From contig CAMHMZ010000001.1 in NCBI GenBank assembly GCA_946186375.1, positions 124,001 through 188,000 on the forward strand: DNA of 64,000 nucleotides, given 5' to 3'. The position numbers and the translations under genes are program-made. Positions within the stretch are counted from its first letter, which is position 1; the number at the start of each line of letters is the position of its first letter. The stretch is from an uncultured Clostridia bacterium (lineage in GTDB: Bacteria; Bacillota; Clostridia; Oscillospirales; Oscillospiraceae). This document shows, one piece after another, positions 17,402 to 20,414 of this stretch. The notes beneath the pieces are model-generated. The model was not told where the DNA came from. It was given only the letters and a program-made list of their open reading frames with translations, and did not search any database.

Positions 17402-17680
17402 ATGGACATGAGTTTATTGTCGTTTTTGCCGGGCTCTATTATGGCCCTGCTGGTCATTGCTGCAGTCATCCTGATGGTGAGGCTGCTGTTCAAGCCGATC
17501 AAGTGGGCTTTCAAATTACTTATAAACGCGGCGATCGGCTTTGTGCTTTTGTTCGTCGTTAACTTCCTTGGTGCATTCATCGGAATAGAAATTGCGATAA
17601 CGTGGATCACTGCATTAATCGCTGGAATTTTTGGAATTCCTGGCGTGATCGCAATGCTTCTATTCCAGCTCTTTTTCTGA
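17402..17680 (+). CDS. bofA: pro-sigmaK processing inhibitor BofA family protein
   Basis: small membrane protein with KLLINAAIGFVLLFVVNFLG...ITALIAGIFGIPGVI pattern. Confidence 0.7.
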   Translation: MDMSLLSFLPGSIMALLVIAAVILMVRLLFKPIKWAFKLLINAAIGFVLLFVVNFLGAFIGIEIAITWITALIAGIFGIPGVIAMLLFQLFF

Positions 17681-17704
17681 TGTAGGGAGGGGAGCTATGT
17701 CAAT

Positions 17705-18050
17705 AACCCACGACTGAAGTCGCTGGCTTGCGGAAACGTGGCCTACGGCAACGTCGTAGATGCTTCGGCATCTGATTGATTAGCCTTAGCGACTTCTGCA
17801 AGTCCATTAGGAAACTACAGAGGAAAGAGCTACGTTACTTGAGAATATGCGTGGGAGGCACAAGCTGCGCCGTTTGCACCAAGCGTACAGGCACTCCGGG
17901 ATGCTTCACAAGTCCCGCGACACTGCGGCTGTGTTTTAAACATCTCTAAGGGTAGGAGAAGTGAGCACAGCATATAAAACCTCAGGATAACATTGGCGAA
18001 GTGAACCACAGGGGAAACCCTGCATTAGAGATTCAATTCTTTTGAAAGGA
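17705..18050 (+). ncRNA. putative IscB omegaRNA
   Basis: about 350 nt non-coding, hairpin-rich tract immediately 5' of iscB between left end and start codon. Confidence 0.7.
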
Positions 18051-18061
18051 GGCCAAGACAA

Positions 18062-19426
18062 ATGGCTGTGTATGTAATCAGCAAAGATGGCGAACGGCTC
18101 ATGCCAACCACGAGGCTTGGCCATGTGCGTCATCTGCTCAAGGAGAAGAAGGCGCACATCGTAGGAAGGAAGCCGTTCACCATTCAACTGGACTATGAGT
18201 CCACAGCTTATACTCAAGACATTGAGCTTTGCGTAGACACCGGCGCTCAGCACATTGGCGTCTCCGTAAAGAGTGAAAGCAAGGAATACGACAGCATTCA
18301 ATTTGACCTGCTGCCAGACGAGAAGGAGCGCCACGACGATTGTCTTAAGTACCGGCACACTCGCAGGAACCGTAAACGCTATCGCAAGGCTCGTTTCGAT
18401 AATCGTAAACGTCATGCGGAAGTAAAATGGCTTGCGCCGAGCCTTGCCAACAAAGCCGACCGTCATATCGATATCATCAAAAACTTCGTTTCGGTGGCTC
18501 CAATCACGGACGTTTACACAGAGATGGGTCAGTTCGACATCCAAGTTCTAGCGGCCGTACAGGAAGGGAAACCAATCCCGGAAGGATTGGATTACCAATA
18601 CGGGCCGCAGTATGGTATCGACACGCTGCGCGAGGGTGTTTTCCAGCGTGACAAGTACACCTGTCGCTTCTGCGGACGCAGCGCATTGAATCCAAAGGAT
18701 CGTGCGATCCTGCACGTGCACCACGCCTACTTCTGGCGCGGGCAGCATGGGGATAGGCTCGAAGAACTCGCCACCTGCTGCGAGAAGTGCCATACGACGG
18801 CCAACCATCAGAAGGGTGGCAAGCTCTGGGGCTTTGATGAGAAGCTGCCGCGCTACGTTGGCGCGGCCTTTATGAACTCCGTGAAGTGGTACATCTGGGA
18901 GATTCTCAAAAGAGATCTGCCGTGTGATGTCCACATGACATACGGTGCAGTGACCAAGCGTTCACGCTTGAGCCTCGGTTTGGAGAAAAGTCATACGAAC
19001 GACGCCTATGCAATGGGGACGTTTCACCAGGCGATTCGAGCAGATTCTATTGTTCTGCGTAAGCGCCGGAGAAACAACCGAATCCTTGAGAAGTTTTACG
19101 ACGCGAAGGTCATAGACCGGCGCACCGGGAAAAAGGTATCCGGGAAAGATCTCGGTTGCGAGAGAACAAAACGCAAAGAACCCAGAGTGTCTGAGAAGAG
19201 CTTGCGTCAGTTTCGCGAGCAAAAGGTCAAGCGAGGGTATCGTTCCATACGCAAGCAAAGATACGAAATTCAACCAGACGACCTATTGATTTACAACGGG
19301 CAAACGCTTCACGCTAAAGGTGTGCACAGCAAAGGAACTCGTGCCATTATACGCGAAACCAAAAAATCTGTTGCAATCTCACAGGTAAAAATTTTCAAAC
19401 ACGTTGCCGCTTGGGCAACAGCTTAA
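18062..19426 (+). CDS. iscB: IscB RNA-guided nuclease (RuvC + HNH)
   Basis: RuvC-I LCVDTGAQHIGVSV; arginine-rich bridge helix; RuvC-II VYTEMGQFD; HNH CRFCGRS...HVHHAYFW...CCEKCHTTANH; RuvC-III SHTNDAYAMG. Confidence 0.93.
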   Translation: MAVYVISKDGERLMPTTRLGHVRHLLKEKKAHIVGRKPFTIQLDYESTAYTQDIELCVDTGAQHIGVSVKSESKEYDSIQFDLLPDEKERHDDCLKYRHTRRNRKRYRKARFDNRKRHAEVKWLAPSLANKADRHIDIIKNFVSVAPITDVYTEMGQFDIQVLAAVQEGKPIPEGLDYQYGPQYGIDTLREGVFQRDKYTCRFCGRSALNPKDRAILHVHHAYFWRGQHGDRLEELATCCEKCHTTANHQKGGKLWGFDEKLPRYVGAAFMNSVKWYIWEILKRDLPCDVHMTYGAVTKRSRLSLGLEKSHTNDAYAMGTFHQAIRADSIVLRKRRRNNRILEKFYDAKVIDRRTGKKVSGKDLGCERTKRKEPRVSEKSLRQFREQKVKRGYRSIRKQRYEIQPDDLLIYNGQTLHAKGVHSKGTRAIIRETKKSVAISQVKIFKHVAAWATA

Positions 19427-19484
19427 GAGAGGAGGGGCGGCTTCCTCCAACGACTGAAGTCACGGGTCTCCGCCGCCAATTATT

Positions 19485-20414
19485 ATGAAAGGTACTGAAG
19501 GATACGAAAAAGCAAAATGGCTGGCTGTTATTTTCCTGATACTGCTAATCGTCATGCTGACAAGCTGCGCGCGGGGGACAAGAGCGTCTGTTGATCGAAT
19601 AGCCGTGACGCAAGCGCAGCGAACTTTCTGCCAGAAGGAATCCGAAACTGGCAAAGAGAAAAAAGAGTCAACAAATCTTTTTTCCAAGGGTGAGGAGTTT
19701 GTGATCGACACGTCCGATTTAAGCAAGGGCCTCGTCACAGTGTCAGGTGTCGGAAAAGACAGTGAGAGCTATAGATTTATAATGGCACATGGAGATGATG
19801 TGGTGGCACATCGCCTGGACGCGAATGGAGAAGAAGAGGTCTTTCCTCTGATATTTGGTGACGGAGAATACGACTTCAGGATCGTCAGGATGCTTTCAAG
19901 GGGACTTGGAACGCGAATAATGAATGAGCGCGTGAACGTGACAATAAAGGACGAGATGTATCGCTTCGTAAACCCAAACAAATTTGCCAATTACTCACCT
20001 AAGATGGTTAGTATCAGAGCGGCGAATGAGATTAAAGAAATGTACGAAAGCGATAAAGACCAGTTACTGGCCGTGATGAAATACATCGATGAGCGAGTCG
20101 AGTATGACGATGACAAGGCCGAGAGTATAAGCGCACAATCCGTATATGTTCCGAATCCGGAAGAAACGCTTCATGATGAGAAAGGCATTTGCATCGACTA
20201 CGCTTCCTTGGCGGCAAGCATGCTAAGGAGCATTGGTATCCCCACAAAAATCGTTGTGGGAACATACGACTCGAAAGACGGGACGGTGGCTCACGCGTGG
20301 AATGCTGTTTTCCTGAAAGCAGACGGTTGGGTGTATGTGGATCTTTCCGGTTCTGGGACAACATACATTCAAAAAGAGCTTTCCAGTAGATATACGACGA
20401 AAAGATTTTATTAA
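19485..20414 (+). CDS. transglutaminase-like domain lipoprotein
   Basis: GICIDYASLAASMLRSIGIPTKIVVG...HAWNAVFL...YVDLSGSG (C-H-D triad). Confidence 0.88.
   Translation: MKGTEGYEKAKWLAVIFLILLIVMLTSCARGTRASVDRIAVTQAQRTFCQKESETGKEKKESTNLFSKGEEFVIDTSDLSKGLVTVSGVGKDSESYRFIMAHGDDVVAHRLDANGEEEVFPLIFGDGEYDFRIVRMLSRGLGTRIMNERVNVTIKDEMYRFVNPNKFANYSPKMVSIRAANEIKEMYESDKDQLLAVMKYIDERVEYDDDKAESISAQSVYVPNPEETLHDEKGICIDYASLAASMLRSIGIPTKIVVGTYDSKDGTVAHAWNAVFLKADGWVYVDLSGSGTTYIQKELSSRYTTKRFY

What the first reader, a model, noticed from the sequence alone, without database searches (positions are those of the whole stretch)
17700..19480. Intact IscB with its own omegaRNA-like leader
All RuvC and HNH catalytic motifs read through (D in CVDTG, E in YTEMG, HVHH/CEKCH, SHTND). 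An uninterrupted ~350 nt hairpin-rich non-coding tract sits exactly where IscB omegaRNAs lie, and GACTGAAGTC-type ends flank the unit. No tnpA is present, so it looks mobilised in trans or domesticated. By analogy with known IscB systems the guide would be the roughly 16 nt just before the left end (near ...AGGGAGGGGAGCTATG), giving a directly testable target.
Basis: partly seen in the sequence, partly recalled or inferred. Interest (0 to 1): 0.72.

Follow-up and report, generated by a model that had tools for sequence, protein, structure and literature searches.

The report
Start-codon IscB element carrying ribosome site
The stretch is a genuine IscB jumping element (an RNA-guided relative of Cas9) that landed exactly between a gene's ribosome-binding site and its start codon, and its right end, like those of many related elements, carries a substitute ribosome-binding site plus a hairpin that would let the invaded gene still be translated.

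Summary
Confirmed: window 17699-19484 is an IscB/HEARO (omega-RNA) insertion element. The omega-RNA passes its Rfam cut-off (94.3 bits against 83) and IscB passes NCBIfam (257 against 175). It has no tnpA. The HNH domain is not fully canonical: its Asn is Glu235, shared with only one of 109 IscBs compared.

Beyond the finding: the TAM at the right end (ATGA, 19485) is the start codon of a transglutaminase-lipoprotein gene. The displaced Shine-Dalgarno (SD) sits in the left flank, so the element split a translation start without altering the ORF. In relatives whose boundaries are fixed by divergence, 15 of 21 insertions lie within 20 nt of an ORF start (4.1 expected). Elements with an RTG TAM carry an SD-like AGAAAGGAGG just before the right-end hairpin, with the start codon about 7 nt after it (31/38, against 1/21 with NTAA-type TAMs; held-out set 15/17). 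The motif appears in different reading frames, outside the ORF, and in IscB-less elements. Likely function, not shown: restoring translation of the invaded gene. I found no report of it, but the founding HEARO/ISC/OMEGA papers were unavailable.

The parts
17402..17680 (+). upstream neighbour, BofA-family gene (host)
   Evidence: Pfam PF07441, 82.6 bits
17683..17698 (+). guide-encoding left flank TAGGGAGGGGAGCTAT; it also holds the displaced Shine-Dalgarno AGGGAGGGG of the downstream gene
   Evidence: 16 nt 5' of the GTCA left end; unique in the genome apart from two other places with 3 mismatches
17699..18011 (+). omega-RNA (HEARO) scaffold; its first base is the left end of the element
   Evidence: RF02033 94.3 bits, model 1-211/211; GTCA left end shared by nearly all relatives
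18044..18052 (+). Shine-Dalgarno GAAAGGAGG of iscB
   Evidence: sequence
18062..19426 (+). iscB, 454 aa; RuvC D59/E154/H311/D314, HNH H220/H221, HNH Asn replaced by Glu235
19426..19435 (+). SD-like motif AGAGAGGAGG directly before the right-end hairpin
   Evidence: anti-SD duplex -15.8 kcal/mol, better than every window tested in its own ORF; conserved in relatives
19436..19477 (+). right-end hairpin: 6-bp outer stem GGCGGC/GCCGCC, 5x5 internal loop, inner hairpin
   Evidence: same architecture in relatives
19478..19484 (+). 7-nt spacer AATTATT, last bases of the element
   Evidence: spacing of about 7 nt recurs in relatives
19485..19488 (+). inferred TAM ATGA, which is also the start codon of the next gene
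   Evidence: right ends of elements at two sites diverge just after RTGA/RTGG; IsrB TAM NTGA in PMC9581776
19485..20414 (+). invaded gene: transglutaminase-domain lipoprotein starting MKGTEGYEKAKWLAVIFLILLIVMLTSC
   Evidence: PF01841 77.9 bits; lipoprotein-type N-terminus supports this ATG as the real start

Best explanation
Window 17699-19484 is an IscB insertion element without its own transposase. Shown: it sits between the Shine-Dalgarno and the ATG of a lipoprotein gene, its right flank begins with ATGA, and its right end has the order SD-like motif, hairpin, 7 nt, ATG. Inferred: the omega-RNA carries the 16 nt of left flank as guide; IscB uses it to cut or nick uninterrupted alleles (TAGGGAGGGGAGCTAT next to TAM ATGA), which favours keeping or copying the element; a TnpA acting in trans moves it. 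Inferred, and the new part: because the TAM is itself a start codon (or lies within the translation start region), insertion separates a gene from its SD, and the element pays for this by supplying its own SD. Once the right-end hairpin folds, that SD lies about 7-10 nt from the preserved ATG, so the invaded gene can still be translated. Estimated separately: element identity about 0.97, insertion between SD and ATG about 0.9, translation-restoring role of the right end about 0.6.
For: HEARO and IscB models. Rejoined flanks read TAGGGAGGGGAGCTAT|ATGAAAGG, a normal SD-to-ATG spacing. Boundaries fixed by divergence of copies: 11/21 with the TAM as start codon of an ORF (expected 3.1), 15/21 within 20 nt (expected 4.1). 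PHROG matches starting at about profile position 1 confirm the TAM ATG as the real start in L233, L237 and L229, and the gene at the right end is a baseplate-wedge gene in L243 and a late sigma-factor gene in L223. SD-like motif in the top 5% of ORF windows for 24/42 right ends (2.1 expected); 31/38 RTG-TAM against 1/21 NTAA-TAM, Fisher 5.5e-9; held-out loci 15/17. The motif lies after the stop codon, or inside iscB in different frames, or in elements lacking iscB. Only 4 of 31 SD motifs have any start codon within 13 nt downstream. The window's RTG+SD clade is nested among NTAA/no-SD IscBs.
Against: No expression or cleavage data. The TAM class changes only about 4 times on the tree, so the SD-TAM association has few independent events; a paired test cannot reach significance. 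The window's right-end RNA fold is no more stable than shuffles (z 0.95). Start-codon enrichment may follow simply from an ATGA TAM plus loss of gene-breaking insertions. A cruder test using ORF length alone was not significant (12/32 against 8.8 expected); adding the upstream-stop criterion gave 10/26 against 4.2, p 0.005. Some RTG elements lack the SD (L092, L102, L202, L224, and L111/L120/L125). HNH Glu235 may weaken target cleavage. No empty-site allele was found.
Confidence: 0.65

Rival explanations
1. The purine motif before the right-end hairpin is a DNA signal for transposition (read by TnpA or paired with the hairpin loop), not a ribosome-binding site.
For: It sits within a few nt of the hairpin foot (median 3), and RTG-type right ends also have TTCCTC in the hairpin loop whereas NTAA-type have TTCATC, so GGAGG could pair with CCTCC.
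Against: The four RTG elements without GGAGG still keep TTCCTC (L092, L102, L202, L224), and the one NTAA element with GGAGG (L095) has no CCTCC loop. The best matches extend to AGAAAGGAGG(TGA), the full complement of the 16S tail. In predicted RNA folds the motif is mostly outside the hairpin. In IS608 the recognised guide tetranucleotides lie on the 5' side of each hairpin next to the cleavage site (own knowledge), which here is the other side of the hairpin.
Confidence: 0.2
2. The SD-like motif is a relic, or a still-used SD, of a lost tnpA or small gene downstream of iscB.
For: Some relatives carry tnpA directly after iscB (L095, L162, L163, L167, L177).
Against: In those tnpA-bearing elements the right-end hairpin follows tnpA and, except L095, has no SD before it. 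The motif is kept over deeply separated clades, usually has no start codon at usable linear distance, and persists in 338-391-nt elements with no gene.
Confidence: 0.08
3. Start-codon position is a passive by-product: the TAM happens to contain ATG, and insertions inside genes are purged; nothing restores translation.
For: The TAM RTGA naturally occurs at starts; many IS survive best between genes; some elements lie elsewhere.
Against: It does not explain the SD-like motif, its absence with non-start TAMs, or insertions at starts of phage genes such as a late sigma factor, a baseplate wedge and a virion structural protein that presumably must still be made.
Confidence: 0.25
4. The copy is a decaying or domesticated IscB: loss of the HNH Asn makes it a nickase or dead guide protein.
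For: Glu235 in place of Asn found only here and in L173 among 109 IscBs; in SpCas9 the equivalent Asn863 is needed for HNH cutting (own knowledge).
Against: The ORF, RuvC residues, omega-RNA and right end are all intact; Glu can be a metal ligand; the change is shared with a 57%-identical relative, so it has been kept through substantial divergence rather than appearing in a dying copy.
Confidence: 0.2

Closest known systems
IscB / OMEGA systems of ISC (IS200/IS605-type) elements, e.g. OgeuIscB (7XHT) and OrufIscB
   Same: RuvC plus HNH protein, upstream HEARO/omega-RNA, guide from the left flank, TAM on the right side, frequently no tnpA (PMC9755519; PMC13180657)
   Different: Inferred TAM ATGA instead of NTAAA (OrufIscB); HNH Asn to Glu; start-codon insertion and right-end SD-hairpin, which I did not find described
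HEARO nucleases MG35 (PMC9755519)
   Same: Compact IscB with an RF02033 RNA in the 5' UTR; only a few next to TnpA
   Different: Right-end translation features not discussed in the passages I read
DtIsrB (PMC9581776)
   Same: NTGA TAM matching the RTGA right flanks seen here; the SD of the nuclease gene lies in the last omega-RNA hairpin
   Different: Nickase without an HNH domain; that SD is for the nuclease gene, not for the invaded gene
IStrons (group I intron plus IS605 elements; own knowledge)
   Same: A TnpA/TnpB-type element that lessens harm to the invaded gene
   Different: They splice out of the mRNA; here the proposed rescue is at translation initiation

Membership tests
IscB (RNA-guided nuclease) | family profile match | tested here: met
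   NF040563 256.9 bits, cut-off 175
IscB (RNA-guided nuclease) | RuvC catalytic residues | tested here: met
   D59, E154, H311, D314 conserved in 107-109 of 109
IscB (RNA-guided nuclease) | complete HNH motif | tested here: inconclusive
   H220/H221 and the C/H zinc ligands are present, but the motif Asn is Glu235
HEARO / omega-RNA | covariance-model match upstream of the nuclease gene | tested here: met
   RF02033 at 17699-18011, 94.3 bits against 83
OMEGA system | guide taken from the element flank and used for cleavage next to a TAM | not testable with these tools
   Position of the guide fixed by the GTCA end; cleavage not tested
OMEGA system | TAM on the right flank of the element | tested here: met
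   Right ends of relatives at different sites diverge after RTGA/RTGG; sequence inference only
IS200/IS605-type (ISC) transposon | subterminal hairpin end, no target duplication | tested here: met
   Right-end hairpin of shared architecture; rejoined flanks give a sensible site
IS200/IS605-type (ISC) transposon | own tnpA | tested here: not met
   None in the element; Y1 transposase elsewhere in the MAG. Common for IscB elements (PMC9755519), so it lowers only the claim of an autonomous transposon

The most novel reading that the evidence does not exclude
A large part of the IscB/HEARO elements are start-codon specialists: their TAM is the start codon or translation-start region of the target gene, and their right end is a portable translation-start module (extended Shine-Dalgarno, hairpin, 7 nt, preserved ATG) selected to keep invaded genes, including essential phage genes, translated.
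Probability: 0.55. Interest if true: 0.8.

Novelty: new variant of a known kind. Interest (0 to 1): 0.68.

Why it matters
IscB is the ancestor of Cas9, and how its elements persist without transposases or host benefit is open. If their ends carry a translation-rescue module, they can sit in essential genes at low cost, which would help explain their spread in phages and plasmids. It would also explain the ATGA/GTGA insertion motif and link TAM choice to host-gene anatomy. The claim is testable with simple reporters. It also predicts that guides of such elements are mostly ribosome-binding-site sequences.

Tried and rejected
Terminal inverted repeats from the two CGACTGAAGTCG copies: rejected, they are hairpin stems. 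Empty-site alleles: element DNA in 149 relatives (none besides own genome); homologues of the invaded gene too distant; joined Finegoldia flanks in plasmids (only the occupied halves); an exact phage junction (0 hits). Close relatives of the window IscB: none in viral contigs with a single-sequence query, one in genome contigs (L038). Leader ORF after the SD motif: rejected, start codons within 13 nt in only 4/31. SD pairing with the hairpin loop: not supported by co-variation. ORF-length-only test of start-codon position without the upstream criterion: not significant. Paired phylogenetic test: too few TAM changes. Founding papers on HEARO, ISC and OMEGA elements are not held in the library, so novelty rests on a partial search.

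Full report
WHAT IS THERE. The ORF 18062-19426 (+, 454 aa) matches NCBIfam guided_IscB with 256.9 bits against a cut-off of 175. Directly upstream, 17699-18011 matches the HEARO RNA family RF02033 over its full length (94.3 bits, gathering score 83). The neighbours are host genes in the same direction: a GNAT gene, a BofA-family gene (17402-17680), then after the element a transglutaminase-domain lipoprotein (19485-20414), NfeD and an SPFH protein. The same MAG (3.29 Mb, 83.9% complete) carries two more IscB/HEARO elements on the same contig. They are 36-37% identical to this IscB but 97% identical to each other over 1.68 kb at two different sites. A Y1 transposase gene lies on another contig.

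EXACT ENDS AND GUIDE. I collected IscB/HEARO loci from genomes, plasmids, phages and viral contigs. Almost every left end is GTCAnnnACC at the first base of the HEARO model. Comparing copies inserted at different places shows the right ends diverging just after RTGA or RTGG. For the window this gives an element of 1786 bp, 17699-19484, left flank TAGGGAGGGGAGCTAT (17683-17698, the predicted guide) and right flank ATGAAAGG. In the MAG the guide has no other site with fewer than 3 mismatches.

CATALYTIC RESIDUES. RuvC D59, E154, H311 and D314 and the HNH His pair are kept. The HNH Asn is Glu235; among 109 aligned IscBs it is Asn in 107 and Glu only here and in the nearest relative, L173. The alignment to OgeuIscB shows the same (LEN against LEE). 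By analogy with Asn863 of SpCas9 (own knowledge) this could weaken HNH cutting; that is inference.

INSERTION AT A START CODON. Rejoining the flanks gives TAGGGAGGGGAGCTAT|ATGAAAGG: a Shine-Dalgarno, a normal spacer, and the ATG of the lipoprotein gene, whose product starts with a lipoprotein signal peptide. The element thus sits between SD and start codon. In relatives with boundaries fixed by divergence, 11 of 21 have the TAM as the start codon of an ORF of at least 50 codons with a short upstream extension (3.1 expected from RTGR sites in the same flanks), and 15 of 21 have such a start within 20 nt (4.1 expected). A larger set, partly delimited by eye, gives 34 and 45 of 68 (8.9 and 12.4 expected). 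A fully automatic set gives 10 of 26 (4.2 expected, p 0.005). Using ORF length alone the automatic set is not significant. In three phage loci the protein starting at the TAM matches a PHROG profile from about position 1; the genes hit include a virion structural protein, a late sigma factor and a baseplate wedge. In Cetobacterium (L168) the annotated coordinates fit a TAM that is an overlapping stop-start ATGA.

A SHINE-DALGARNO BEFORE THE RIGHT-END HAIRPIN. The right end is a hairpin of about 42-60 nt (outer stem, 5x5 internal loop, inner hairpin), then about 7 nt, then the TAM. Just 5' of the hairpin lies a strong anti-SD complement; in the window AGAGAGGAGG, in many relatives AGAAAGGAGG(T). 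In 24 of 42 non-redundant right ends it is in the top 5% of windows of the same ORF (2.1 expected). Split by TAM: 31 of 38 RTG-TAM elements have it against 1 of 21 NTAA-type elements (Fisher 5.5e-9). In loci fetched afterwards and scored automatically, 15 of 17 have it. The motif can lie after the iscB stop (window, L038, L137, L073, L172), inside iscB as Glu-Arg-Arg codons (L165, L207, L220) or in another frame (Lys-Glu-Val in L084, L197), and in elements without iscB (L087, L093, L101; a weaker form in L118-L122). So it is kept as a nucleotide signal, not as protein. Only 4 of 31 have any start codon within 13 nt, so its only plausible partner is the ATG about 7 nt beyond the hairpin.

HOW IT MOST LIKELY WORKS. 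Shown: the anatomy and its conservation. Inferred from known OMEGA biology: guide use, target cutting, TnpA in trans. Inferred here: an ATGA TAM puts the element between a gene's SD and its ATG; the right-end SD, brought near the ATG by the folded hairpin, restores translation. The window clade (window, L173, L038, L176) is RTG-TAM with SD and is nested among NTAA-type, SD-less IscBs, consistent with the SD being gained along with the start-codon TAM. The number of independent changes (about 4) is too small for a phylogenetic test.

RIVALS. A DNA signal for TnpA, a tnpA relic, a passive by-product of the TAM, and decay of the copy were weighed (see rival explanations). The first is the most serious for the new claim: TTCCTC against TTCATC in the hairpin loop also follows the TAM class. 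But loop and SD come apart in the exceptions (L092, L102, L202, L224 keep the loop without the SD; L095 has GGAGG without the loop).

LIMITS. No expression or cleavage data; no empty-site allele; some viral boundaries chosen by eye; the window hairpin is not unusually stable as RNA; key older papers could not be read.

VERDICT. The element is a new member of the IscB/HEARO kind. The start-codon insertion with a resupplied Shine-Dalgarno appears to be an undescribed feature of a large part of that kind, strongly supported as a sequence pattern and moderately supported as a function.

Noticed in passing
window 18764-18766 (IscB residue 235): The HNH-motif Asn is Glu in the window IscB and in its nearest relative L173, Asn in 107 of 109 others; possibly a natural nickase lineage.
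   Followed up: partly
L118, L119, L121, L122 (genome G510): Four copies, about 95% identical, of a roughly 338-bp HEARO element without any iscB, at different sites and with TAM GTGG: MITE-like omega-RNA-only elements.
   Followed up: partly
L128 (G739:C3:472657): A parA-like N-terminus (ATGATTGTARTAATTTCAAGC) is present on both sides of the IscB element, the right copy heading the full gene; either a rearrangement between two parA copies or a re-supplied 5' coding end.
   Followed up: no
G000 contig C1, 141699-143484, about 253361 and 282477 onward: All three IscB elements found in this 3.29-Mb MAG lie on one 378-kb contig.
   Followed up: no
right-end hairpins of L073, L082, L137 and others against L083, L085, L162 and others: The hairpin internal loop reads TTCCTC with RTG TAMs and TTCATC/TACATC with NTAA-type TAMs; possibly the transposase-side determinant of target choice.
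   Followed up: partly
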